Shown here: piece by piece, positions 43,276-57,482 of the stretch
Layout of the letters: every line of letters begins with the position of its first letter
How positions within the stretch are numbered: the first letter of the stretch is position 1
Assembly: GCA_030425385.1 (NCBI GenBank)
Contig: JAUIAH010000001.1
Span: 620,001 to 684,000 of the forward strand
Direction of reading: 5' to 3'
Length of the DNA stretch: 64,000 bases
DNA from: Verrucomicrobiia bacterium
GTDB taxonomy: Bacteria > Verrucomicrobiota > Verrucomicrobiia > Verrucomicrobiales > DEV007
Position numbers and translations under genes: made by a program
The notes under the pieces: model-generated
Database searches by the model: none
What the model was told of the DNA's origin: nothing
Seen by the model: only the letters and a program-made list of their open reading frames with translations

Positions 43276-43522
43276 GGGAACAAGGAAATATCCTCAAAGA
43301 AATGGTATTTATTAAAATTCCACATCCGTCAACAAAGAGTTTCCAAGCCCACTGATACCAAAGCCCCCAAAGCATCGCCCCCGGGCACCCAACTCTCCAG
43401 CTGCGCTCTGCCGCTCCCGACAAAGAATGCCAATCTCCCCAACTCCGAGCGGTATTTGAAGAATGTGCAGAAATAGTGAAACGCCGTGGCCCATCTTTTC
43501 GAAGAGGAGAGTGAAAGCCCCT

Positions 43523-46500
43523 ATGAAGCCCCACCATCAACAACCTTCTCCTCGACTGAAAGCCGCACGCACGATTGCGGTCACGCTACTGATTTCCCTG
43601 TTGCCCGTTGGATTGGTGCAGGCAGACACGGTTGGCGGCGCGGCCATCGTGGTGACCACGTTGACAGATGAGGACGATGGCCTCCTCGGGGGGAGCTCGG
43701 GAGTCTCCCTCCGCGAAGCGGTGAAATACGCTTCGCCCGGAGCAGACATCACCATCGCGGGCGGCATCGGGCGTTCGATGAACCTGACCTTAGGTGCGCT
43801 CAGAATCGAGCAAGACCTGACCATTGATGCCTCGAGTCTCTCCAAACCGCTTTGGATCGATGCCAATGGCGGGCCTCGAGTCTTCGATATCATCAGCGGG
43901 ACCTGTGTGGTCCTTCGCCACCTGATCATCAGCGGTGGGGATGCTGGAGCGACCAATGGCGGCGGCATCTACACCGATGGCGAGCTCACCTTGGAGGACT
44001 GCACGGTGCGCGATAACACCGCGAATTGCGCTGGCGGAATCACCAATGGGGGCAATCTCACGCTCATTCGGTCCACCTTGTTTGGAAACACCGCGACGGA
44101 TGTGGGCGGCGCGATCTGTAATGGTAACGTCCTCACGATTCGTCAATGCACGTTTAGTGGTAATCATAGTGTCAACCGCGCGGGCGCCATCGCCAACTGG
44201 GGGCCGCTCGACATTCAGCATGCAACGATTGCGAACAACACCGCGGTGAATTTCGAAGGCGGCATCGCAAAGTACGCAGGCACTCTAACCATGGGTTACA
44301 CCATCGTGGCAGGCAATCACGCTTCGTCTACTCCGAATCTCCTTGGGGCCATCGACACTCCCACAGGACCCAATGTGACCAGTGGGGATCCCTTGCTCGC
44401 ACCGCTGGACACCCACGGCGGCATCACCAGCACCATGCCCCCGCTGCGCTATTCTCCGGCCATCAATCCTGCGACGGACTCCGGCGTGACGACCGATCAA
44501 CGTGGCTTCGCCCGCAGCGGCACGCCTGACATTGGCGCTGCGGAATACGGCCCGGTTGTTCAAGTGATTAGTATCAATGATAGCGGCCCAGGAAGTTTGC
44601 GCCATACCGTGGCCATTGCGGCAGCGCAGGGTGGTGTGGTAGAGATTGCACCTCAGTTGGGTGGGCAAACCGTGACGCTAACAAGTGGGCCTATCGCATT
44701 CTCTGGTAAAGAGTCGCTCCTGGTGGACGCATCGGGCTTCTCTAACGGTTTCACGGTGAGCGGCGATGACCAATTTGGCGTCTTTACCATTGCTGAAGAT
44801 TCTAGCGCTATTCTTCATGGATTCACGATCACGGAAGGGCATGCGGCGAGCGGCGGCGGGATCTACAACGCGGGCCAACTCCACCTCATCGGGTCTACCG
44901 TCTGCGGCAATCGAGCCGCAGACGGCGCTTTCAGTGGAGGCTCAGGAGGCGGGATCATGAACTTGAATGACATGACAATCACCGCCTCGACCGTCAGTGA
45001 CAATCAGTCAGGAGAGGGCCCAGATAGTGAAGGCGGCCCATTGGGTGGCTCTGGGGCGGGGATCATGAGTCTTGGCAGGCTGGTCGTGGACCGCTCGACG
45101 ATCGTCAACAACGTCTGCGCACCCGGTGGTCTTGCAGGTGGCCTCTACAAATTCTTTGAAGGCAGCCTAACGGTGACCCATTCGACAATCACGGGAAACC
45201 AGTCTTCCGAGGGTGGGGGTGTCTTTAGCACCGGGGACTTCATTCTTCGCCACTCGATCCTAACCTTTAACCTAGCACCTTCTTTCTCTAACATTGCAGG
45301 ATTCTTCAACTCGGAAGGCACAAACAATGTGACGGATGACGATCCTATCTTGGCTCCGTTGGGGAACTATGGCGGCCCAACGGAGACGATGCCGCCTCTT
45401 TCGGGTTCGCCTAGCATTGATCAAGGCATCGGTTCTCAGGAGTCGATCGACCAGCGCGGCTTCAGTCGTGACGGTGTGCCAGATCTCGGTGCGGTGGAGT
45501 ATAAGCCCTTATCGATGTCGGGCGTTGTCTGGGAAGATTTGGATGCCGATGGTGTGCGCATGGCAAACGATGCCGTCATCGCCGGTGCCCAGATCTTGCT
45601 CTTCAATGCGGAAGGAACGTCGCTGATTGCTTCGGTCATGTCGGCGGCGGATGGTAGTTACTCTGTGAGTGAAGCGGATGGCCTCATTCCCGGAGAACAG
45701 ATCATGGCGCTGAATCTTCCGGCGCTCGACGCCGATGTTCTTTGGACGGCGACGTTGCGGGATGCCGGTTCTGACGAAAGCACCGATAGCGATCTCCTAC
45801 CCTGTGATCTCACGGCAGGGCGGTGCCTGCTTGAGACCATCCAGGTGCCTGCTGGATTTCTCCAATTTGACGCAGGCCTCGCTCGACAGGATCTGGATCG
45901 TGGTAGCATCACCGGCCAGCTCTGGCACGATGTGAATGACGACAGCTTCAGGATTGACGAGCCAGGCTTTGGCAACGGGGCGGTGGAGCTGCTTGCTGGC
46001 GACACCGGTGATCGGGTGGCGATGACATCCACCGACCCTGCGGGAAACTATCAATTTCTAAATCTACTGCCCGGAAACTATCAGGTTCGTTTCCTACTCC
46101 CTCCCGGAATGGACCACTTCACAGGCATCGCGGGTGACAGTGAGGTGTCTTTCTACGGCTATTCCTTGATTCATCCGGTCGCTCCTGGGGGGGCTGTTAG
46201 TGTGAGTGCGGGCGTGACGGATCAACCGCCCGTCCTTGCTCAGCAGCCCGCGAACGACACCGCCTTGCGCACCGCGCCGGAGACGGCTCAGGGCCTGCGA
46301 CTGCATCGAGACGCCGCCACAGGAGAAACGACCTTGCGCTGGACGATCTTACCACTGATGCGCAATTCCGATGGGAAGAACTTCTTCCCAAGGCAATGGG
46401 TCGAAACGAGCCGCGACCTTGTTCATTGGGAACACACTGGCATTGTCCTTTCTGCCACGACCAGTGGGCAGGCTCGCGAAGAGCGGGTTCCTGTTCAGCT

Positions 46501-46567
46501 CGATCCATCGCAGCCCACCTTTCTACGCATCCGCGTTGCCTCACCTACAGATCCTACATTCGACTAA
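43523..46567 (+). CDS. exported Pmp-like beta-helix protein with SdrD-B modules
   Basis: A 1014-residue surface protein. Signal peptide at about 10-38 (AARTIAVTLLISLLPVGLVQA minus its first residue). Two right-handed beta-helix blocks follow (about 45-350 and 355-670) built of repeats with GG[AI] and T-x-x-x-N patterns such as NTANCAGGITNGGNLTLIRS and NTATDVGGAICNGN, like chlamydial polymorphic membrane proteins. Each block ends in QRGF ... GTPDIGAAEY or similar. Two SdrD-B-type modules come next (GVVWEDLDADGVRMANDAVI; GQLWHDVNDDSFRIDEPGF). The C-terminus has SRDLVHW ... FLRIRV, a module shared with other exported proteins here. First gene of the Hcp-containing operon; 20 bases separate it from the next. 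Likely an adhesin or surface polymer-binding protein. Confidence 0.87.
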   Translation: MKPHHQQPSPRLKAARTIAVTLLISLLPVGLVQADTVGGAAIVVTTLTDEDDGLLGGSSGVSLREAVKYASPGADITIAGGIGRSMNLTLGALRIEQDLTIDASSLSKPLWIDANGGPRVFDIISGTCVVLRHLIISGGDAGATNGGGIYTDGELTLEDCTVRDNTANCAGGITNGGNLTLIRSTLFGNTATDVGGAICNGNVLTIRQCTFSGNHSVNRAGAIANWGPLDIQHATIANNTAVNFEGGIAKYAGTLTMGYTIVAGNHASSTPNLLGAIDTPTGPNVTSGDPLLAPLDTHGGITSTMPPLRYSPAINPATDSGVTTDQRGFARSGTPDIGAAEYGPVVQVISINDSGPGSLRHTVAIAAAQGGVVEIAPQLGGQTVTLTSGPIAFSGKESLLVDASGFSNGFTVSGDDQFGVFTIAEDSSAILHGFTITEGHAASGGGIYNAGQLHLIGSTVCGNRAADGAFSGGSGGGIMNLNDMTITASTVSDNQSGEGPDSEGGPLGGSGAGIMSLGRLVVDRSTIVNNVCAPGGLAGGLYKFFEGSLTVTHSTITGNQSSEGGGVFSTGDFILRHSILTFNLAPSFSNIAGFFNSEGTNNVTDDDPILAPLGNYGGPTETMPPLSGSPSIDQGIGSQESIDQRGFSRDGVPDLGAVEYKPLSMSGVVWEDLDADGVRMANDAVIAGAQILLFNAEGTSLIASVMSAADGSYSVSEADGLIPGEQIMALNLPALDADVLWTATLRDAGSDESTDSDLLPCDLTAGRCLLETIQVPAGFLQFDAGLARQDLDRGSITGQLWHDVNDDSFRIDEPGFGNGAVELLAGDTGDRVAMTSTDPAGNYQFLNLLPGNYQVRFLLPPGMDHFTGIAGDSEVSFYGYSLIHPVAPGGAVSVSAGVTDQPPVLAQQPANDTALRTAPETAQGLRLHRDAATGETTLRWTILPLMRNSDGKNFFPRQWVETSRDLVHWEHTGIVLSATTSGQAREERVPVQLDPSQPTFLRIRVASPTDPTFD

Positions 46568-46587: not shown

Positions 46588-47136
46588 ATGAAAACCAACT
46601 ATCATTCAAGTCTCCTAACGCTTGTCATTGCCTTTGTTCTTTCCTGCTTTGCTCACCAGGCTTCTGGTGCCTTAGACATCTTCCTTAAGATTGAAGGACC
46701 TGAAATCGAGGGTGAATCCACGGATGCCACGCATACGAAAGAGATTGAGGTGTTGGCGTGGAGTTGGGGAGCTTCACAGTCAGGCTCGACGCATCTGGGA
46801 GGAGGCGGTGGCGGCGGCAAGGCAAACTTCCAAGATATCAGTATCACCAAGTGGCTCGATAAGTCTTCCGTGACATTACTAAAGGTGTTGACGGAGGGTG
46901 CTCACATTGACAAAGCGACCCTGACCGTCCGCAAGCCTGGTGGTGCGAATGTTCTCGTCATGGTGATGGAGAATATCATTGTTAGTAGTTTGTCTACTGG
47001 GGGCAGTGGCGGGGAAGATCGTCTGACGGAGAATGTGACCCTAAACTTCTCGAAGTTCACCATCACCTACTTCCCTGAGGATGATTCGACTGATCCTACG
47101 TTCAAATGGGACATCGCTGAGAACGAAACCTTCTAG
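46588..47136 (+). CDS. Hcp-like protein (type VI tube family) with Sec signal peptide
   Basis: A 182-residue member of the Hcp family, which forms hexameric rings stacked into the type VI secretion tube. The mature part has all the family blocks: ALDIFLKIEG, EVLAWSWGASQSGSTHLGGG, DISITKWLDKSSVTLLKVL, KATLTVRKPG and STGGSGGEDRLTENVTLNFS. Canonical Hcp begins directly at ALDIFLKI; here an extra 28 residues (LLTLVIAFVLSCFAHQASG) form a signal peptide, and no ATG or GTG sits next to the Hcp start, so the extension is real. A Sec-exported Hcp cannot be loaded in the cytoplasm into a type VI apparatus. It lies between the beta-helix protein (20 bases) and a second, larger Hcp gene (18 bases). Confidence 0.9.
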   Translation: MKTNYHSSLLTLVIAFVLSCFAHQASGALDIFLKIEGPEIEGESTDATHTKEIEVLAWSWGASQSGSTHLGGGGGGGKANFQDISITKWLDKSSVTLLKVLTEGAHIDKATLTVRKPGGANVLVMVMENIIVSSLSTGGSGGEDRLTENVTLNFSKFTITYFPEDDSTDPTFKWDIAENETF

Positions 47137-47154
47137 GATACCTAACCGAACACG

Positions 47155-50121
47155 ATGTCCACGATGATCTGCTGCATACGGCTCGCCTTGATCTGGGTGG
47201 TGGCACTGACCGCCACCACAGCCCAGGCAGAGACGCGCTTCTGGGTAAAGATCGAGGGGGAGGCCACTGCTGGCGAGGCCGACACGAAAGAGCGCGATGG
47301 ATGGATAGAGGGACTTGCCTGGAGTTGGGGCGGTAGTCAATCCGGCACCACCCATTTCGGTAGTGGTGGAGGAGCGGGTAAGGCTGCTATCCAAGACCTC
47401 TCCTTTGTCAAATACACGGATCGGACAACACCTGCCCTCATGCGTGGGCTCGTGACCGGGCAGGTCTTTCCCACCGTCTGGCTCGATGCGGAAGTCGGCG
47501 AGCATATCGTCGAGCGCTACGCGATGCGCAATGCTAGGGTGACTTCCCACAGTCTGGGAGGCTCAGGCGGTGAGGATCGTTTCACGGAGAATATCTCGTT
47601 CTCGTTTACCAAGATTGAGCGTGGCTACTTGCTGCGCGATCCAAGTGGAAGGAAACCTGTTTTCCAAGGGAGCACGAGTTACGATCTTCAAAAGAACAAG
47701 ACGGAAACCTCTGGCAAATTGCCCGTGCTTGAAGACAAAGACCGCGATGGCACTGACAATATTGCAGACGTCGATCAAGACAACAACGGCCGGGAAGATC
47801 AATTGGAGGGCATGCCCATTCCTCCCACGCCCAGCCTGGCCGGGATCACTGGGTTCGCTTGGCTTGATCTCGATGCCAATGGCGTGCGTGATGCTGTGGA
47901 GCCTCCTGCCATTCAGACACGAGCAGAACTTTATGCGGCGGGAAATGCCACGCCCATTCAGTCCCACACGGTGAGCGAACAGACGGGAAGTTACGCCTTC
48001 CTTGAACTGCCCCCTGGCGACTATCAAGTGCGCTTCATTCCCGATGTGGGCTTCCAGTTCGGCCCACAACAGGCGGATAGCAGTCCCGATCCAAGCACGG
48101 GATTCAGCATGGCCACGACGATCGCCGCAGGGAACAATGTCAGTCTTAATGCAGCCATCTTGTCCGATGGGGATGCCTACTCGGCCTTCACGTTCGATGG
48201 CTTTGATGACCCTGACGAAACGCTTATCCTGAGCGGCGAAAGTGCGTTCATCGACGATGCTGGGAGCAGCACACCGATTCTCCAGCTCACTCCCAACTTT
48301 CCACAACGCCGAGGCAGTGCCTTCACGGACGATACCGTGGTGGCTTCTTCCTTCTCCACGCATTTCCAGTTCCGCATGCGCGGCTTCTTTCTTCAAGGAG
48401 ACGGCTTCGCTTTCGTGGTCAATGATTACAATGGATCGGATCACGAAGACCCGCGCCTTCTTGGCAGTGGCGGTTCGCAACTCGGCTATGGTGGCATTCC
48501 TAACAGCTTCGCCGTGGAGTTCGATACCCTTGCAAACGGCTCGCCTGACCCGAACGGCATTCACGTAGGCATCCTGGAGAACGGCGTCACAGACAATGAT
48601 GCTGCGGCTACCATGACAACTACAAGCTTTGGCCGAATCAATGATGGTACGCTTTGGAATGCTTGGATCGATTACGACGGCACAGATCTTGAGGTCTACG
48701 TGAGCGCATCGCCTAGCAAACCCGCCACACCGCTCGTTTCCAAAGCCATCGACTACACCCAACATCTCACCACACGCAAGGCCCGTGTTGGCTTCACCGC
48801 CGCCACGTTCTCCGCCACACAGGCGCACGAAATTCTCTACTGGAGCTACCAGGGCGGGCAAGACAACGCGCTCCGCATCGATGGCACAACTTCGCAGGCC
48901 GAACTCGATGCCGTGGTGAAAGCGCCAGGGAACCTGGAGATCGAGAATGACACCCGTCCCATCATCGCGATGGCCAATTTGGAGACGGTCTGTGGCGATC
49001 TTATCATTCGCAACAACGGAAACCTCCAGACGATCAACCTCCCCAACCTTATCGAAGTTGTCGGCGATGTGATCATCGAAGGTAATCATTCTCTTGATCA
49101 AGTGGAGCTGCCCAAGCTCCGCAAGGTCACTGGCAATGTGCGTATCGCGACACAGGCTGCAGTCACGACAGATCTAGCAAACGTGCAGAGCGAGGACCTT
49201 GCTATCGTTGGTGTGGCGCTCCAGACGGTCACTGGAACGACCGGTTTTGGTGAGACCAAGGTCGAGATCGATGATGAAGCCGCCAACATGGCCCTGACCA
49301 TTCCCGAGGGTGCCTTCACCGTTCCGGAGGTCTTTGAGGTCCAGCAACTCGATCCCGCTGGTCTGCAGGAGTTCGAAGCAAGCGCCTTTGGCGCCGGCGG
49401 AACACCCCTGAACCTCGCCCCTGTCCTTGGCTTCGAGTACAGCTTTGCCGGCGGCGGGCTCACCTTAAACCGCGAAGTGGAAGTGCGCTTTGAGATCGAC
49501 TTGGGGGAACTGTCGCTGGAACAACGTGACGATCTCCTCACCGCCTTCGATAGTGGCATGCTCACCGTCTTCGGTTCGCGAGGCGAAGATGATCCGATCG
49601 AAGTCTTTGCGGTCTGCAACACGCTCGCCTTCGGCGTCTGGGAGAATTGCGCCCAAGGCCGCGCTCTCGATGCCAGTGGCAATGTGGTCTCAAGCGAACT
49701 CGCCAGTGTGCTAGAATTCACGGTCTTTGCCCGCCATTTCTCTACCTATGGCGTGACGATCATTGATGAGGTTGAGGTGCTCCAATCCACTCTCGATGCA
49801 GCCGCGCAGAAAGTTTGGGATAGCCTTACACTAGCGCCTACATTATCCGAAGATGGCTTCGATGCACTCATCGATCCCATAGAGACACGCACACTGACAT
49901 GGACCTCACAGGGCATCGCTACGACTGTTGATGCCCTCCAACTGCATCCCACCTACAGCGTGGAGTTCAGCACAGACCTCACGACCTGGACGCCAATCGA
50001 TGACGCGATCATTCCCCAGGCCTTCCAGACTGATGCCGAGGATGCGCGTTCCATCACCGTGCCGGTAGAAGACAGCGGTCGTGAACGGACGTTCTTCCGG
50101 GTCGTCATGGCAGCACCTTAG
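47155..50121 (+). CDS. exported multi-domain protein: Hcp domain, SdrD-B, lectin-like and receptor-L-like modules
   Basis: 988 residues. Signal peptide to about 25 (LALIWVVALTATTAQA). Residues 27-165 are an Hcp domain (FWVKIEGEATAG, LAWSWGGSQSGTTHFGSGGG, DLSFVKYTDRTTPALMRG, LGGSGGEDRFTENISFSF). Then an Asp-rich calcium-type linker (DKDRDGTDNIADVDQDNNG), an SdrD-B module (GFAWLDLDANGVRDAVEPP), an L-type-lectin-like domain at about 375-565 (HFQFRMRGFFLQGDGFAFVV, FAVEFDTLANGS), a receptor-L-like repeat (NLETVCGDLIIRNNGNLQTI, VVGDVIIEGNHSL), a beta-sandwich region and a C-terminal module with STDLTTW ... FFRVVM. Each part suggests ligand or carbohydrate binding on the surface, with the Hcp domain as ring-forming unit. 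Last gene of the operon. Confidence 0.9.
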   Translation: MSTMICCIRLALIWVVALTATTAQAETRFWVKIEGEATAGEADTKERDGWIEGLAWSWGGSQSGTTHFGSGGGAGKAAIQDLSFVKYTDRTTPALMRGLVTGQVFPTVWLDAEVGEHIVERYAMRNARVTSHSLGGSGGEDRFTENISFSFTKIERGYLLRDPSGRKPVFQGSTSYDLQKNKTETSGKLPVLEDKDRDGTDNIADVDQDNNGREDQLEGMPIPPTPSLAGITGFAWLDLDANGVRDAVEPPAIQTRAELYAAGNATPIQSHTVSEQTGSYAFLELPPGDYQVRFIPDVGFQFGPQQADSSPDPSTGFSMATTIAAGNNVSLNAAILSDGDAYSAFTFDGFDDPDETLILSGESAFIDDAGSSTPILQLTPNFPQRRGSAFTDDTVVASSFSTHFQFRMRGFFLQGDGFAFVVNDYNGSDHEDPRLLGSGGSQLGYGGIPNSFAVEFDTLANGSPDPNGIHVGILENGVTDNDAAATMTTTSFGRINDGTLWNAWIDYDGTDLEVYVSASPSKPATPLVSKAIDYTQHLTTRKARVGFTAATFSATQAHEILYWSYQGGQDNALRIDGTTSQAELDAVVKAPGNLEIENDTRPIIAMANLETVCGDLIIRNNGNLQTINLPNLIEVVGDVIIEGNHSLDQVELPKLRKVTGNVRIATQAAVTTDLANVQSEDLAIVGVALQTVTGTTGFGETKVEIDDEAANMALTIPEGAFTVPEVFEVQQLDPAGLQEFEASAFGAGGTPLNLAPVLGFEYSFAGGGLTLNREVEVRFEIDLGELSLEQRDDLLTAFDSGMLTVFGSRGEDDPIEVFAVCNTLAFGVWENCAQGRALDASGNVVSSELASVLEFTVFARHFSTYGVTIIDEVEVLQSTLDAAAQKVWDSLTLAPTLSEDGFDALIDPIETRTLTWTSQGIATTVDALQLHPTYSVEFSTDLTTWTPIDDAIIPQAFQTDAEDARSITVPVEDSGRERTFFRVVMAAP

Positions 50122-50249: not shown

Positions 50250-53200
50250 TCAACGTAGCATGCCCGGCACGCATGCAGCACCGCCCCCGCCACCGTTGCC
50301 TGAGGATAGCGCTTCGGCGATGCCCTTGAAACAGTCGTCAATCGTTTCCCCGAGTTCCAAGCCGTTCTCGATGGCCCGTTCGGCCACCTGCTTGACCACT
50401 TCACCGTATTCGGCTGCCACACTGTTGCCCGTAGGGTCCTTCTGGCTGATCGGATTGTTGGCTGCGTAGCGGTAGAGGTTGAGATCACCTCCCTCGAAGC
50501 CGATGGGATCTTCGGAGAGGAAGCGGCCAATGTTAGGGTCCATCCAGCGTGCGCGGTTGTAGTAGAAGCCGGTCGCTTCATCAAACAAACGCCCTGCGAA
50601 GCGCAAGTCGCCGGCGTCTCCCGCAGCGGTTTCGGTCAGTGCCACGGTTTGCCCAAAGGCGTCGTAGTCAATGGTAGCGATTTGGTTGCCAGAGATGTCG
50701 GTCACGGAACGCACAGATCCTAGGTGATCGGTGTGCAACCAGCGCAAGCCTTTGCCTTCGCGCCACTCCGCGATGAATTGGTCGGCGTTGTCTCCTGGCA
50801 CATAGTAGAAGATCCGTGAGGGCTCCGCGCCAGCACCGGTGAATTCGCAAAGGGGCATGTCGTCCCTACCATAGAGCGTCCATGCGGTGGTGCCGCCGTC
50901 CTCGGTTCGGCCGATCATGAGATCGCGGTAGTCGTAATGATAGACAACCGTCTTCGTGGCGGATGCTCCGATGCTGGGGCGAAGCACGACTTTGGTGAGC
51001 CGATTGCGGTGGTCCCAGGCGAGGTCCATGATTTCACCAGTGCCCTTGTCCCGTCGCTGGGTGAGGTTGCCTTCGAGATCGTATTCGTATTCATGAGTGG
51101 TGGTTTCGGACAGGCGATTGCCGGTGCTGGTGATGTCGCCGCTCAAGGCACGATTACCGTTGAGATCATAGGCATAGCTTTCGTTGGCACGGGTCGAATT
51201 GGTCACATTGGTGACTTGGCCGTGACTGTCATAGCCATAACTCGCAAGATTAGCCCCGTCATCAGCCGTGGCCAAACCTCGTCGAGCGTTGCGTGTCAAT
51301 GTGAGGGTGCCGCGAGAAACGTAGGGAGTTCCGGTCCCATCCTTGTGTGTGATGACCAGAGGAAGGCCATCAAGATCCACGTCAACAGTCGTCGTGCCCA
51401 CCAGGTTGTCATTGGTGATGGTGGTGAACTCATCATAGCGGGTGTAGACGCGCGATTGACTACTATAGTTGCGATGGATGTCGAATCGGGCATCTTGATC
51501 GCTTCCGGGTGCGTTGAGTTGCACGATCCCGACATTGCCCGAGTGGTCCCGAGTATAGCGATACAAGTCAGTGGCACCGAGGCGCACTCGTCTGACCTGA
51601 TCGAGGTCTTCGTAAACGTAGTGGATTGATCGTTGAGCCCCTTCTGGAAACGTCATGTGGAAGGTGGTGATCTCTGGGGTGGCCACACGAGAGAAACTGT
51701 ATTCCAGGTCGCCATCCGTGACGCTACTGAGTACTTGATTGCGACTGTATTCAAAGGTCATTTCGTGAATGACCGCGTCATCGCTGGGATCGTGCCAACG
51801 CTCGGTCGTCATCCGATTCTGGTCGTCGTAGACAAAGGTGCGCTTGCGACCATTCCGATCGATCGTGGAAAGGCGATTGCCTGAAAGATCGTAAGTGTGC
51901 GTTGTCATGTTTCCGTTAGGATCAGTTTCTGTCACCACTTTGTTTCCAGCGTTGTAGCTTGTCGTTGTGGTATTGCCGGTTGGGTCCGTTACGGAGGTGC
52001 GGTTGTCGTCGGCGTCATAGCCGTAAACCGCTGTCGCGGTGCCGATGGTTTCCTGCGTGAGGTTGCCGCGGCTATCGAAGGTGTGATCGGTGACCAGGCC
52101 AGCGGGATCAGTGATAGTCTTCACCTTGTCTGCCAAGTAGGTCACTTGGGTCTCGTTGCCAAAGGCGTCTTCACGCGTGGTCAGACGATGCTTGGCATCG
52201 TAGCTGAAGGTTGTCGTGCCGCCATCAGGCATGGCGAGCGAAGCGATGAGACCGCTGGAGTGGTAGGTGGCGGCAATGGTGGTGCCATCAAATAAAGTGA
52301 TAGCGTTCAGCTGTTCAAATGGATCATTGCTGTAGTCGTAGAACCATTCTCTCCCAGTGGCATCCATGTAGGTAGCCGTTTGGCCTGCATTGTTGTGAGT
52401 GAAATACCGTTTCACCGTGTTGCTGAATTTCCGCTCTATCAGTTTCCCAACTTCGCTGTAAGTCATTTCCTCCGTTCTCAGTGAGGGAAACGTGTGCAAG
52501 GTCACCTGGTTCGCCTCATTGTAGGTCATTTCTGTTGCGCGCCCACTTGGGGGCTGGATCTTGGTCTGGTTGCCTCGGGTGTCGTAAGTGTAAGTGGTGA
52601 CATGGCCCTTGGCATCGGTCACAGACGTCTCCAAATCGGGGTTCGTTGGGTCTTCATAGGCGCGCATGATGACGCCGCCATTGGGAAGCTCCTCCTGGAG
52701 GAGGTTGCCGCGCGCGTCGTAGCGCAGGGTGGTCACGTTTCCCCGATAGTCACTGACAGAGCCGCTGAATCCGTTCAGATCCCAGGTCTGTTCGCTTCGA
52801 TTGCCGTTCTCATCGATGATGGCGGCCAGACGGCCTTCGGCGTCGTACTCATAGCGCACCCCTTTACGCCCGAGGGGATCGGTGATCTCTTTGAGGTAGT
52901 GTGCGGGATCGTCGTAATAGCGGAAGGTGGTGGTTGTCGACGTTGGATCTGTCACACTGACAAGGTCCCCATTGGCGTCGTAGCCATACTGCCAGGAAGC
53001 GCCATCGGGCGAGTTGATGGTCGTGATGCGGCCAAGGGTGTCGCGCGTGAAGGTCACTTCGGCACCGGAACTGTGCCGGATGCCGGTTTCTGAGAAGAGC
53101 AGTTGGTTTCCAGCTTCATCGGTCACTCCTAGGAGACCTTCTGTTTCATGATAGGCATACTCGGTCCCATCCTTGGTCGTGAGGATGAATTCGTCAGGAT

Positions 53201-56200
53201 TGTAGGGAAAGCCGATGAAGAAGAGCGTGGCTTCGCCAAGCGAGTTTTGAGAGAGGAAGCCTTGGTCACGCTCCGGGACCTCCAGGGTTTCATAGACGCC
53301 GGGATCCGGTGTGAAGACCGCGCGAAAGGACGTGCCAAGATAGCTAAGCTGCGCAGCTTCCAGACCGAAGGTGAAGCCGATACGTTGTCCCGAGGGGCTA
53401 TTGAGATAGATGCGTGTTCCGACTTTGTAACCATTGGAAGAGAACGCGGCACCATTGTCGGGTTCGGTTTCGTTCAGCTGCGGGTTGGCGTAGCCGAGAC
53501 TCCAGCCATGGCCGAAGTCACCCACAACGTCTGTGTCAAAACTATCATAGGTGCGCTTGATCTCGATGGGTAGACCCGCAAGAGCCACGGTGAGATCGGT
53601 GAAATCCTGGCGCAAACGTCCAAGCTTCACGTTCCCCTCCACATTCACCAACACCGCATCGGTCCATCCGAGGCCGATGTCGTTCCACACCGTGACACGA
53701 ATGACATACGCGTTGTTCTTGAGTAGGGTCGCGTCCAGGCTGGCCAAGACAGTATCAGGATCGGGAAGGGCCGTGCTCTCCGCGAGGCGTGTGTAAGCGC
53801 TAGGATTAGCATCGAGCTGGTTGAGGTCAACCTCGCTGGCCAGAGCGTAATCGACATACCATTCGTGAATGTCGTGACTGGAGGTGATCGTTCCAACGAT
53901 GTCCGTGAGATAGGTGATGTTTTCTCCGAAGGTAGGCGAGGCAATGCTGATCGAGGGATAAAGAGCCTCCGTGGAAACGCGTAGGCCGAAGGCATGCCCG
54001 GCGTGCGCGGTCAATCCACTTTCATCTGTGGCGCTGACGCGAATGAAGTATACTCCATCTGCCAAGGTATCGCCAGGCAACGTGGCCAAGCTCGCATTCA
54101 CCACCACCTCATTCCCCTGACCAAGCAACACGTAATCTGGATCATCTGCACTCAGGTCGTAAGGATCGATCGCGTCCACGAGTGCATAATGCACCTCCCA
54201 GCTCACAAGATCTCCGTCGGTGATGGTGCCCACGACTGCCGTGTCACCATCGATCACGACTCCCGATCCTGGTGTCTCGATCTGGATCTGCGGCGCGTTA
54301 GCTGCACGTTCACTCAAGCTCGGCGCGTTGGGGCTAGAAGGGATGGTTCCGTCTGCATTTCTCACGGCCAATGTCAGGGTGCTCTCACCCGTCTGGCCAG
54401 CGGCATCCGTGGCGGTGGCCGTGAGAATTAATTGCCCAGGCCATGCCGCCGTGACCATGGCGTTGCCATCGGCGTCGAGACTGACATGGGCGCCATTGGC
54501 TGTGAGAGAAAGCGAGGCCACGCCAAAGTCATCGGTTCCGCTGACTTGGAGGGGCACCAAGTCACCAGCTTTGGGATCTGAGTGATCCGCTGAAGTCGAG
54601 ATGAAGGCCTTGGGTGGCAGATCACGGCCCATGCGCCCGAAGTCCACGTCTGTCACGGCTTCGCCTTCATCAACCGTCACCACGTGGTAGTCCGTTTCCT
54701 GTGGCACGTAGTTGATGGCCTCGAAACCGGTCAGATCAAGACCGGGAAGGGAGCCACCATTGTTCAGTGATTTCACACGAATGTAAGAGATGGGAAAGTC
54801 GATCCCGAACCGCTCTAAATCGAAGCCCACGGGGCCGCCTTCATCGGCCGCTGCGAGAAAGACCATCTCAGAGGACTTCTTCCCCACCGATACCTCGAAC
54901 CGTTCGCCTTTGAAATTGTTTGCGGAGGTCACCACCTGGAAGTCGTTTCCAGGCCCGTCGATGATCTGTTCGTCATCGAACCGTACGGTGACCGTCGAGT
55001 CTTTCGAGAGGGCTAGCACTTCAGTGGTGTTGTAGAGGCCTATGGGAGGAATGTCTCCCCGATTGCCAATCGGCTTCAGAAGGATGTTAGGGTCAACAGC
55101 CTCTGGCTCTTTGCCCAGGACCACGAACGGGGGCTCCCAGCTGGCGGTGGCATTGAACCCGTAGGGAAAGGGAAAGGCACCTTCACCCGAATGATCGAAA
55201 CTCTCGATCGCATCCGGTAAGCCATCCGGCGTCGCCGGTATTCCACCGGGAACGGTCTGGATCCAACCCAAGGGCAATTCTTGCATCACACGATAGGTCC
55301 CTGGGCTGACATCAGTGAACGTGTAGTGCCCATCGCTCCCGGCCGCGGTGAATGGCTCGTTCTCCCCACGCACTCCGTTGTCATCGAGATCGAGAAAGAT
55401 CACGGTTCCGAGGGCCGGGTCCTCTCCCCCCAGATTGCCGTCACCATCCTCATCGATGAGTGCCTGACCGGCGATGCTGCCAGCGGTGAAGTTGGGAACT
55501 AGAGGATCCGTGCCTTTGAATAGCACTTCTTCACCATCGCCAAAGCCATCGCCGTCTGTGTCAGGCAAGAGATGATTGGTGCCTAACAAAGCGCCTTCTT
55601 CAATATCACTGAGCCCGTCGCGATCACTATCCATGGGTGGATGCGCTAACACTCTGACAAATTGGCGGTCCTCGTTGAGATCAAACGGTAGAGTTGATTC
55701 GAAGAACTCACCGGTGCCATAGAAGGCTTCGCCAAGTGGCTGCCAGTCAACGAGATCCATGCTCCACTCAAACTGATACGCGGCGCCCGCACGGCTCTGC
55801 CATTCGAAGAAGGCCGCGCGATCCGGCGTCGACTCCGCACCAAAGTCCAGAAACGAAGCCCCATCGGTTGGGTCCGTGCCTGCGGCGTATTCCTGGCGCG
55901 TGGTCTGTCCATCGCCATCCAGATCGAGATCCCAATCCGCTGTGGTGAGCCCATAGTGGGACAGCCAGAACGGCGTCGCCGCGTTGCTAGCGCTAGCATC
56001 GATTGCCTCATCGGCTGGAAAGAGGAAGCGCATCATCCCACCGAGCCGGATTCGGTAGTCCTCCGGCGACGAGCCTGAAACATCGGCAAAGCCGCGGCGT
56101 AGATCCCTCTCGATCACCATACGGTCACTGTGCTTTGTCACCAGGCTTCGACGCGTGTCGTTGACCTGACCGAAGTCTTTCGTGCCGCTGTCGATATAGA

Positions 56201-57482
56201 GTCGTATCGAACGGTTCGTCTCCGTGGAAAGAGCGCTCTCCAGGTTAGGAAGCAACTCGGGCTGGATGGCTCCGATCTTGCCAAAGTAATGATGGTGATC
56301 CCAGCCCAAATAAAGTGCTAGATTGGCTCCCAGCTCGTAGCCGACAAAGGCGGTGTTCGATGCACCTCGCAACACACGATAGCGATTCTGTATTTCTGGC
56401 AGAAACTCCAGCTTGAGAAAGTCGGCAAACGTTTCCGCGGTGCCAGGCTGATTCAACACGGTATCGCCCAACGCAGCGCATTCGGTCAGAGCGCTTCTCG
56501 AAAGCAGATCGATGCCGACGATGATCACCTCATGTGTCTGGCCCGTTGCCATCAAATCTGAAAGGATCATTCCGTTAGGATCAAGCGCTGGCTCAGGAGC
56601 GTGCGCGAAGCCCAGGACATTTGGATCATCCTCGAACAAGGCCTGCCCGAAAGCCACGCAAACCAAGGGGTAGTAGCGATCGGTGTGCTCGTCGTAGCCA
56701 CGAGGCAAGAGCACGCGGAAAGGGCGTTCCTCTCCCAAGATCGCCGATGTCACTGTTGGCAAATCGTTCGGGTCATCATCACGACGAGGCGGAGAAACCG
56801 TGGCGTTAGGTTCGTAAAGAAAGAGTGCTTCGTTCTGAACATAGAGCGTTTCGCCCGTGCTCGTGTAGACGGGGTCATCCTCAGGCGCGCCGCCCAGCGC
56901 GGCTGGTTCGCGAGAGGTGTCCGCGCCATCGGTGAAGAAGAATGCAATGGCCTTGTTCGCCTCGCCGATACCAGTTGCTGTAAACCAGCCATCGGTTTCG
57001 GAAAGGGTGACCGATTGCACCGCTCCCTCATCTTGATGCCAGTGCAGGACCGGATTCGCCAGAACCCCTCGATAGGCAATGGTCTTCGTCGCCGGGTCCA
57101 AGACGACCGTTGATGTGCTCGCCGACATTTCCGCTCCCAAGGGGGTGCCATTGCTAGGGCTGGCTGATTCAAAGCCGAAGATCCCACGCGAATAGAACTG
57201 GTAGGTGTAGTCCCGGTTGACCGGAAGCGAGACGTCGATTTCCCAGACATCTTCTGCGATCGCCTCCATGGTCACGGCCTGGGTCACATCGTTGTTGCCA
57301 AGTTCGGGTAGGTTCCCGAGAACGAAAGCTTTCTTGTTCGCTCCGATCGCGCCTTGGTAACGGAACGTGACCACCTCGTGCGTCTGAGCCCATAGGGCCA
57401 ATGGAAGAAGCGAAACAAGGGCGAGAATGCCAGCGCGGGCGGTCATCGCGAGCTTTGGAAGGGTAGGGGATACGAATCTCAT
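50250..57482 (-). CDS. giant exported RHS/YD-repeat protein with N-terminal CBM and dead esterase-like domains
   Basis: 2410 residues. Signal peptide near 15-32 (AGILALVSLLPLALWAQ). Domains in order: CBM20/48-like E-set (VTFRYQGAIGANKKAFVLGN), an esterase-D-like alpha/beta-hydrolase domain at about 250-480 in which the nucleophile motif G-x-S-x-G reads GYELGA (E383), Asp-rich TSP3-like repeats (DSDRDGLSDIEEG; DTDGDGFGDGEE), an SdrD-B module (GSIAGQALIDEDGDGNLGGE), Ig-like domains, then from about 1320 an RHS shell: GLPIEIKRTYDSFD, many YD repeats and the core RFAGRLFDEATGFYYNRARW ... GRFLSEDPIGFEGGDLNLYR ... DPTGN. After the core only 57 residues remain, ending in five Gly and ACVPGMLR; no toxin family or immunity gene is recognisable. 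It converges on the Hcp operon. Confidence 0.93.
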   Translation of the reverse strand: MRFVSPTLPKLAMTARAGILALVSLLPLALWAQTHEVVTFRYQGAIGANKKAFVLGNLPELGNNDVTQAVTMEAIAEDVWEIDVSLPVNRDYTYQFYSRGIFGFESASPSNGTPLGAEMSASTSTVVLDPATKTIAYRGVLANPVLHWHQDEGAVQSVTLSETDGWFTATGIGEANKAIAFFFTDGADTSREPAALGGAPEDDPVYTSTGETLYVQNEALFLYEPNATVSPPRRDDDPNDLPTVTSAILGEERPFRVLLPRGYDEHTDRYYPLVCVAFGQALFEDDPNVLGFAHAPEPALDPNGMILSDLMATGQTHEVIIVGIDLLSRSALTECAALGDTVLNQPGTAETFADFLKLEFLPEIQNRYRVLRGASNTAFVGYELGANLALYLGWDHHHYFGKIGAIQPELLPNLESALSTETNRSIRLYIDSGTKDFGQVNDTRRSLVTKHSDRMVIERDLRRGFADVSGSSPEDYRIRLGGMMRFLFPADEAIDASASNAATPFWLSHYGLTTADWDLDLDGDGQTTRQEYAAGTDPTDGASFLDFGAESTPDRAAFFEWQSRAGAAYQFEWSMDLVDWQPLGEAFYGTGEFFESTLPFDLNEDRQFVRVLAHPPMDSDRDGLSDIEEGALLGTNHLLPDTDGDGFGDGEEVLFKGTDPLVPNFTAGSIAGQALIDEDGDGNLGGEDPALGTVIFLDLDDNGVRGENEPFTAAGSDGHYTFTDVSPGTYRVMQELPLGWIQTVPGGIPATPDGLPDAIESFDHSGEGAFPFPYGFNATASWEPPFVVLGKEPEAVDPNILLKPIGNRGDIPPIGLYNTTEVLALSKDSTVTVRFDDEQIIDGPGNDFQVVTSANNFKGERFEVSVGKKSSEMVFLAAADEGGPVGFDLERFGIDFPISYIRVKSLNNGGSLPGLDLTGFEAINYVPQETDYHVVTVDEGEAVTDVDFGRMGRDLPPKAFISTSADHSDPKAGDLVPLQVSGTDDFGVASLSLTANGAHVSLDADGNAMVTAAWPGQLILTATATDAAGQTGESTLTLAVRNADGTIPSSPNAPSLSERAANAPQIQIETPGSGVVIDGDTAVVGTITDGDLVSWEVHYALVDAIDPYDLSADDPDYVLLGQGNEVVVNASLATLPGDTLADGVYFIRVSATDESGLTAHAGHAFGLRVSTEALYPSISIASPTFGENITYLTDIVGTITSSHDIHEWYVDYALASEVDLNQLDANPSAYTRLAESTALPDPDTVLASLDATLLKNNAYVIRVTVWNDIGLGWTDAVLVNVEGNVKLGRLRQDFTDLTVALAGLPIEIKRTYDSFDTDVVGDFGHGWSLGYANPQLNETEPDNGAAFSSNGYKVGTRIYLNSPSGQRIGFTFGLEAAQLSYLGTSFRAVFTPDPGVYETLEVPERDQGFLSQNSLGEATLFFIGFPYNPDEFILTTKDGTEYAYHETEGLLGVTDEAGNQLLFSETGIRHSSGAEVTFTRDTLGRITTINSPDGASWQYGYDANGDLVSVTDPTSTTTTFRYYDDPAHYLKEITDPLGRKGVRYEYDAEGRLAAIIDENGNRSEQTWDLNGFSGSVSDYRGNVTTLRYDARGNLLQEELPNGGVIMRAYEDPTNPDLETSVTDAKGHVTTYTYDTRGNQTKIQPPSGRATEMTYNEANQVTLHTFPSLRTEEMTYSEVGKLIERKFSNTVKRYFTHNNAGQTATYMDATGREWFYDYSNDPFEQLNAITLFDGTTIAATYHSSGLIASLAMPDGGTTTFSYDAKHRLTTREDAFGNETQVTYLADKVKTITDPAGLVTDHTFDSRGNLTQETIGTATAVYGYDADDNRTSVTDPTGNTTTTSYNAGNKVVTETDPNGNMTTHTYDLSGNRLSTIDRNGRKRTFVYDDQNRMTTERWHDPSDDAVIHEMTFEYSRNQVLSSVTDGDLEYSFSRVATPEITTFHMTFPEGAQRSIHYVYEDLDQVRRVRLGATDLYRYTRDHSGNVGIVQLNAPGSDQDARFDIHRNYSSQSRVYTRYDEFTTITNDNLVGTTTVDVDLDGLPLVITHKDGTGTPYVSRGTLTLTRNARRGLATADDGANLASYGYDSHGQVTNVTNSTRANESYAYDLNGNRALSGDITSTGNRLSETTTHEYEYDLEGNLTQRRDKGTGEIMDLAWDHRNRLTKVVLRPSIGASATKTVVYHYDYRDLMIGRTEDGGTTAWTLYGRDDMPLCEFTGAGAEPSRIFYYVPGDNADQFIAEWREGKGLRWLHTDHLGSVRSVTDISGNQIATIDYDAFGQTVALTETAAGDAGDLRFAGRLFDEATGFYYNRARWMDPNIGRFLSEDPIGFEGGDLNLYRYAANNPISQKDPTGNSVAAEYGEVVKQVAERAIENGLELGETIDDCFKGIAEALSSGNGGGGGAACVPGMLR

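What the first reader, a model, noticed from the sequence alone, without database searches (positions are those of the whole stretch)
47155..50121. Hcp domain fused to SdrD-B, lectin-like and receptor-L-like modules
A single 988-residue protein places an Hcp ring domain ahead of ligand-binding modules. Known Hcp fusions carry C-terminal toxin effectors; a lectin-like cargo with a signal peptide would make a hexameric, multivalent surface lectin instead.
Basis: partly seen in the sequence, partly recalled or inferred. Interest (0 to 1): 0.75.

Follow-up and report, generated by a model that had tools for sequence, protein, structure and literature searches.

The report
Exported Hcp pair displaying a lectin
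A bacterium that shows no sign of the type VI secretion machine makes two neighbouring, Sec-exported versions of that machine's tube protein (Hcp), one of them fused to a plant-type lectin and other binding modules, which suggests that some bacteria re-use the tube protein outside the machine, perhaps as a surface scaffold.

Summary
The 988-aa ORF has a signal peptide, an Hcp domain (Pfam 4e-20), an SdrD-B domain, a legume-lectin domain (6e-31) and a marginal receptor-L domain; Foldseek on a modest AlphaFold model supports the Hcp and lectin folds. Two other Verrucomicrobiota assemblies carry the same full architecture, so it is no assembly artefact. In samples of 142 genomes of the order and 388 of the phylum I found such pairs in 21 genomes, nearly all members with signal peptides, and none of the 21 has the sheath gene tssC; Hcps of tssC-bearing genomes lack signal peptides. 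One later genome of the same genus has both, at separate loci. The window's genome lacks TssC, TssF and TssK. A and B diverge in step, and in the window both keep the extended loop of tube-forming P. aeruginosa Hcp1. Best explanation: a T6SS-independent, Sec-exported Hcp scaffold in which A makes rings and B co-assembles and displays variable binding modules. Ring assembly, A-B contact, surface location and glycan binding are inferred, not shown.

The parts
43463..46567 (+). First gene of the apparent operon: 1034-aa exported protein (CSLREA/choice-of-anchor Q repeats, two SdrD-B domains, C-terminal region resembling that of B)
   Evidence: 20 nt before gene A. A large exported protein also stands first in L049 (2070 aa) and L091 (1450 aa)
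46588..47136 (+). Gene A: short exported Hcp, 182 aa, signal peptide plus Hcp domain (Pfam 6e-35; 2e-48 to P. aeruginosa Hcp1)
   Evidence: AlphaFold2 model, pLDDT 72, matches Hcp crystal structures
47155..50121 (+). Gene B: the 988-aa protein of the finding, 18 nt after gene A
47155..47232 (+). B residues 1-26, Sec signal peptide
   Evidence: sequence and hydrophobicity
47245..47622 (+). B residues 31-156, Hcp domain, extended loop SWGGSQSGTTHFGSGGGAGKAAIQDL kept
47716..47814 (+). B residues about 188-220, Asp/Asn-rich linker of TSP3 type (DKDRDGTDNIADVDQDNNG)
   Evidence: sequence reading; invariant in the orthologs; no Pfam match
47848..48135 (+). B residues 232-327, SdrD-B domain
   Evidence: MSCRAMM B-domain chains in the PDB
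48184..48861 (+). B residues 344-569, legume-type lectin domain with metal and sugar site residues D416, G440, E455, D457, N461, D465, H470
48928..49131 (+). B residues 592-659, receptor-L-like repeats (marginal match)
   Evidence: strands of the model at 593-672 with pLDDT 74-87
49252..49764 (+). B residues about 700-870, unassigned conserved region ending in HFSTYGV
   Evidence: no Pfam match
49849..50118 (+). B residues 899-988, C-terminal domain with 60 relatives in the genome

Best explanation
A and B are the two subunits of a T6SS-independent, Sec-exported Hcp assembly. Both are sent through the inner membrane by cleavable signal peptides. Outside the cytoplasm A forms Hcp-type rings or short stacks. 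B joins through its own Hcp domain, as a terminal ring or in mixed rings, and carries its C-terminal modules outward; in the window these are SdrD-B, a legume-type lectin, receptor-L-like repeats and a C-terminal domain shared with dozens of large exported proteins, which may place B at the surface. The result would be a multivalent lectin display on a ring scaffold, used for attachment to glycans. Shown: both genes, their order, the signal peptides by sequence, the domains, the absence of T6SS core genes, recurrence of the pair, parallel divergence of A and B. Inferred: ring formation, A-B contact, surface location, glycan binding.
For: Pair in 21 genomes sampled, none with tssC. Signal-peptide-like h-regions in 24 of 28 A and 27 of 28 B proteins; none at the N-terminus of the 16 Hcps of tssC-bearing genomes. 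Those 16 form one cluster with a single stray, support 98/92. In G509, same genus, an unsignalled Hcp lies about 1 kb from tssC while an exported pair sits on another contig. No TssC, TssF or TssK in the window's genome. A and B pairwise distances correlate over 27 loci, r 0.64, 0 of 2000 permutations as high; A and B resemblance to Hcp1 correlates at r 0.90, also between two pairs of one genome (window 54/40%, C9 pair 32/22%). Both window proteins keep the loop that contacts the next ring in other Hcps (PMC4650826 for the loop's role). The Hcp1-like A model matches solved Hcps. Lectin site residues kept. C-terminal domain: 60 copies in the genome, 17 of 20 sampled end within 7 residues of the stop.
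Against: No experiment and no multimer model. In many other pairs the extended loop is shortened or rewritten, so stacking cannot be general. Part of the A-B correlation is shared ancestry. The ortholog L091 has E for D416 and S for N461, so sugar binding is not strictly conserved. A and B do not form separate clades. How A and B would cross the outer membrane is unknown.
Confidence: 0.45

Rival explanations
1. The Hcp fold is used as a plain beta-barrel adhesion or binding domain. A and B are exported proteins that bind each other as a small complex, or act separately, without rings or tubes.
For: Ring-contact loops are lost or rewritten in many pairs, and B domains drift further from Hcp1 than A. 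PMC4650826 cites a K_D of 7.2 uM for intra-hexamer contacts, and PMC13323088 finds P. aeruginosa Hcp3 monomeric at 0.1 mg/ml, so a dilute exported Hcp could stay monomeric.
Against: In the window, L091 and L072 pairs both proteins keep the Hcp1 loop and the GGSGGEDR-TEN segment nearly letter for letter, which is not needed for a monomer.
Confidence: 0.3
2. Exported Hcps are soluble periplasmic chaperones or carriers for other exported proteins, in line with the chaperone role of Hcp for T6SS effectors; B tethers the carrier to the envelope.
For: Hcp rings hold effectors in the lumen (PMC13323088); a large exported protein is the first gene of the operon in three genomes.
Against: No conserved client gene: the neighbours differ between loci, except a methyltransferase in seven loci of one family. 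A lectin has no clear role in a chaperone.
Confidence: 0.12
3. B is an ordinary specialised (evolved) T6SS Hcp effector and the T6SS was missed because the genome is incomplete (95.5%).
For: C-terminally extended Hcps are known T6SS effectors (PMC8262886); one genome of the genus has a T6SS.
Against: Signal peptides would send the protein out of the cytoplasm, where T6SS rings assemble; three different core genes are missing and tssC is missing in all 21 pair genomes of the samples; PMC8262886 reports that large cargo blocks tube assembly; in G509 the pair is not at the T6SS locus.
Confidence: 0.04
4. Artefact: a chimeric assembly or a chance ORF.
For: The window's genome is held as 74 contigs.
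Against: Two more assemblies have the same domain order over the whole length, each after a gene A.
Confidence: 0.01

Closest known systems
T6SS tube protein Hcp/TssD (Pfam PF05638), in particular P. aeruginosa Hcp1 (1y12)
   Same: Same fold and family; window A is about 50% identical, with the extended loop kept
   Different: Sec signal peptides, encoded as an A-B pair, no sheath, baseplate or membrane-complex genes nearby, and none of TssC, TssF or TssK in the genome
Specialised or evolved Hcps (Hcp-ET) of Enterobacteriaceae (PMC8262886, citing Ma et al. 2017)
   Same: Hcp at the N-terminus and extra C-terminal domains
   Different: Those are toxin domains delivered by a T6SS; here exported binding modules up to about 820 residues with no toxin domain recognised
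Bacterial proteins with legume-type (L-type) lectin domains, such as the PEP-CTERM proteins of L094 and L095
   Same: Same lectin domain, 35-38% identical
   Different: In the two whose ORF was read it is a 279-aa protein of signal peptide, lectin and C-terminal PEP-CTERM anchor, with no Hcp domain
MSCRAMM adhesins with SdrD-B domains (S. aureus SdrD)
   Same: SdrD-B as a rod-like spacer domain before or after ligand-binding domains
   Different: No LPXTG sorting signal and no MSCRAMM A domain; Gram-negative-type envelope

Membership tests
Hcp/TssD protein family (PF05638) | Score over the curated Pfam cut-off | tested here: met
   A 120.8 and B 72.9 bits against 23.5
Hcp/TssD protein family (PF05638) | NCBIfam TIGR03344 (T6SS tube protein TssD) cut-off 58.9 bits | tested here: not met
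   A 36.0, B 11.9 bits
Hcp/TssD protein family (PF05638) | Hexameric ring, stacking to tubes | not testable with these tools
   Monomer models only; extended loop kept by sequence
T6SS component or effector | TssB/C sheath, baseplate and membrane complex in the same genome | tested here: not met
   TssC, TssF, TssK absent; TssB, TssM and VgrG not searched
T6SS component or effector | No Sec signal peptide; assembled in the cytoplasm | tested here: not met
   Signal peptides on A and B; no dedicated predictor was available
Specialised Hcp (Hcp-ET) | C-terminal extension over 60 residues (definition in PMC8262886) | tested here: met
   About 820 residues in B
Specialised Hcp (Hcp-ET) | C-terminal toxin domain and immunity gene | tested here: not met
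   No toxin family found in B; no candidate immunity gene between B and the convergent gene at 50250
Legume-type lectin (PF00139) | Score over the curated cut-off | tested here: met
   108.4 against 26.3 bits
Legume-type lectin (PF00139) | Metal and sugar site residues | tested here: met
   DG, GG, AVEFDT..N...DP...H kept in B and aligned to a solved lectin; two of them changed in L091
Legume-type lectin (PF00139) | Binds a glycan | not testable with these tools
   Needs a glycan array
Receptor L domain (PF01030) | Score over the curated cut-off | tested here: inconclusive
   15.0 bits in the whole protein, 21.9 in the fragment, cut-off 21.8

The most novel reading that the evidence does not exclude
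Verrucomicrobiota carry a recurrent, so far undescribed class of extracellular or periplasmic Hcp assemblies: Sec-exported, sheathless rings or tubes made of a core subunit A and a capping, module-bearing subunit B, that is, the T6SS tube protein turned into a surface appendage or scaffold, here ending in a multivalent legume-type lectin.
Probability: 0.3. Interest if true: 0.85.

Novelty: new variant of a known kind. Interest (0 to 1): 0.62.

Why it matters
Hcp is regarded as the tube of one injection machine. A recurrent, Sec-exported Hcp pair in genomes without that machine would show the fold at work on its own, outside the cytoplasm. It bears on whether such forms are ancestral to T6SS or derived from it, and it warns that annotating these genes as T6SS tube proteins credits bacteria with a T6SS that they lack. 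If B assembles on A, it gives a simple modular way to display lectins and other binders in multivalent form. Both claims are testable with two small soluble proteins.

Tried and rejected
T6SS effector reading: rejected on signal peptides, missing core genes and genomic distribution. Strict mutual exclusion of pair and T6SS: proposed after and then withdrawn, because G509 of the same genus has both at separate loci (a 680-contig assembly with 4% contamination). A third core gene: the methyltransferase after B in seven loci is confined to one family and is probably local synteny. A and B as two separate ancient lineages: not supported by the tree, most inner branches weak. ZU5-type identity of residues 700-870: no Pfam match. 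Gemmatirosa plasmid Hcp (H30) as a pair outside the phylum: an unsignalled T6SS Hcp beside what reads as a tssC gene; two Rhodobacteraceae plasmid Hcps likewise beside annotated tssC. Literature: five searches aimed at exported or T6SS-free Hcps or Hcp-lectins found nothing on point and one returned no paper; the library lacks most subscription journals, so this is weak evidence of novelty. Promoter and terminator scans gave no more sites than shuffled sequence.

Full report
Observation. The ORF at 47155-50121 is a single 988-aa frame. Pfam finds T6SS_HCP at 31-156 (3.8e-20), SdrD_B at 232-327 (4.4e-11), Lectin_legB at 344-569 (5.6e-31) and a sub-threshold Recep_L_domain, which passes its cut-off by a hair when the fragment is scanned alone. 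The closest solved structures by sequence are P. aeruginosa Hcp1 and legume lectins. An AlphaFold2 model from a shallow alignment is weak overall (pLDDT 59, pTM 0.33) but its Hcp and lectin parts each find their fold in the PDB. The N-terminus MSTMICCIRLALIWVVALTATTAQA reads as a Sec signal peptide.

Not a chimera. A profile of this protein and the G096 ortholog found two full-length relatives among GTDB representative genomes, both in Verrucomicrobiota assemblies: L091 (978 aa) and L092 (985 aa, the same contig as G096). Both have the same domain order and both are preceded by a short Hcp gene. In the three genomes the order is large exported protein, short Hcp, long Hcp, with gaps of 20/18, 27/43 and 8/54 nt. 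In 75 genomes of the family, only the window's genome and G096 hold the full-length protein.

The pair. The gene 18 nt upstream, 46588-47136, is a second exported Hcp (182 aa, 6e-35). The genome has a second, diverged pair on contig C9. In samples of 142 genomes of the order and 388 of the phylum (overlapping sets), Hcp hits come in two kinds: single or clustered Hcps of ordinary length, and tandem pairs of a short Hcp followed by one of 250-1000 aa. Pairs occur in 21 genomes (G000, G006, G028, G032, G062, G064, G092, G095, G096, G101, G118, G124, G135, G170, G230, G245, G264, G288, G334, G354, G358), in several of them twice; a pair without signal peptides (G025) is not counted. The sheath gene tssC (VipB) was found in none of these 21 genomes, and in 16 others of the two scans. 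The 16 Hcps taken from 13 of the tssC genomes have no N-terminal hydrophobic segment; 24 of 28 A and 27 of 28 B proteins do. The exceptions include one A gene broken by a stop codon, gene starts that my longest-ORF rule places wrongly, and the unsignalled G025 pair. My measure is a hydrophobicity score, not a trained predictor.

An exception that helps. G509, of the window's genus, has tssC and tssK. Its Hcp near tssC has no signal peptide (MAVDMFIKIEG...), while a signalled pair of 212 and 331 aa lies on another contig. The two kinds can therefore coexist, and the pair is not simply a decayed T6SS locus. The assembly has 680 contigs and 4% contamination. The window's own genome (95.5% complete) has no TssC, TssF or TssK.

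Ancestry. In a tree of 78 Hcp domains the T6SS-associated Hcps form one cluster with a single stray exported Hcp (98/92). A and B are each scattered, with most deep branches weak; the window, L091 and L049 B proteins group together (99/99). Whether the pair arose once is not settled.

A and B travel together. Over 27 loci, A-A and B-B distances correlate at r 0.64 (no permutation of 2000 as high), and A and B identities to P. aeruginosa Hcp1 correlate at 0.90. Shared descent explains part of this. But within one genome two pairs differ as units: window pair 54 and 40%, C9 pair 32 and 22%; G092 pairs 53/38 and 23/22. This fits contact between A and B, and does not prove it.

Ring interface. PMC4650826 shows that the extended loop of B. 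pseudomallei Hcp1 mediates stacking of hexamers, and PMC13323088 describes the intra-ring contacts of P. aeruginosa Hcp3. In the window A (SWGASQSGSTHLGGGGGGGKANFQDI) and B (SWGGSQSGTTHFGSGGGAGKAAIQDL) keep the loop of P. aeruginosa Hcp1 (SWGMSQSGSMHMGGGGGAGKVNVQDL) almost unchanged, as do L091 and L072. Elsewhere it is shortened or different, in B above all, and in G096 it is lost in both A and B. I could not model a multimer.

Cargo. B's modules differ between loci: lectin type in three genomes, Ig-like and cadherin domains in G092, TSP3 linkers in G064 and G101, and mostly a short C-terminal region in the rest. The lectin keeps the residues that bind metal and sugar in legume lectins, by alignment to a solved lectin (D416, E455, D457, N461, D465, H470 in the window); the roles given to them rest on general knowledge of the family. 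L091 has E and S for D416 and N461. No toxin family is recognised.

C-terminal domain. The last 90 residues of B belong to a domain with no Pfam or NCBIfam model, present 60 times in this genome, in ORFs of about 200 to 5800 aa. In 17 of 20 sampled cases the protein ends within 7 residues of it. It may be a sorting or surface domain; that is inference.

Mechanism proposed. Sec export of A and B; A rings; B joining through its Hcp domain and displaying lectin and spacers; placement by the C-terminal domain. The first step rests on sequence; the rest is inference. PMC8262886 reports that large effector chimeras bound to Hcp block T6SS tube assembly, so an 820-residue extension is more at home at the end of an assembly than within a tube, and unlikely in a T6SS.

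Verdict. I call it a new variant of a known kind: clear members of the Hcp family, in an exported, T6SS-free setting for which my searches of open literature found no description.

Noticed in passing
window 49849-50118; 60 places in G000: An undescribed C-terminal domain of about 90 residues (Y.VE.S.DL..W ... FYRV at the end), with no Pfam or NCBIfam match, at the very end of many large proteins of this genome: a candidate sorting or surface domain.
   Followed up: partly
window 49252-49764 (B residues 700-870): Conserved unassigned region ending in HFSTYGV, invariant in three orthologs; recalls the HFS self-cleavage motif of eukaryotic ZU5-type domains, untested.
   Followed up: partly
window 50250-57482, - strand: 2410-aa RHS/YD-repeat protein with esterase-like and CBM20 domains at its N-terminus and the C-terminal-type domain in its interior, convergent with the Hcp operon.
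   Followed up: no
L035, L037, L038, L042, L045, L046, L048, directly after gene B: A methyltransferase with DUF7059 and DUF7782 follows gene B in seven loci of one family.
   Followed up: partly
L039:6123-7583, L088:5913-7397, L044:5519-7122: Diverged exported Hcps preceded by a gene whose C-terminus resembles that of B: possibly the pair in reversed order.
   Followed up: partly
G211 (L079:4532-7088): Four different Hcps in a row near a T6SS sheath gene, one with an insert after strand 2.
   Followed up: no
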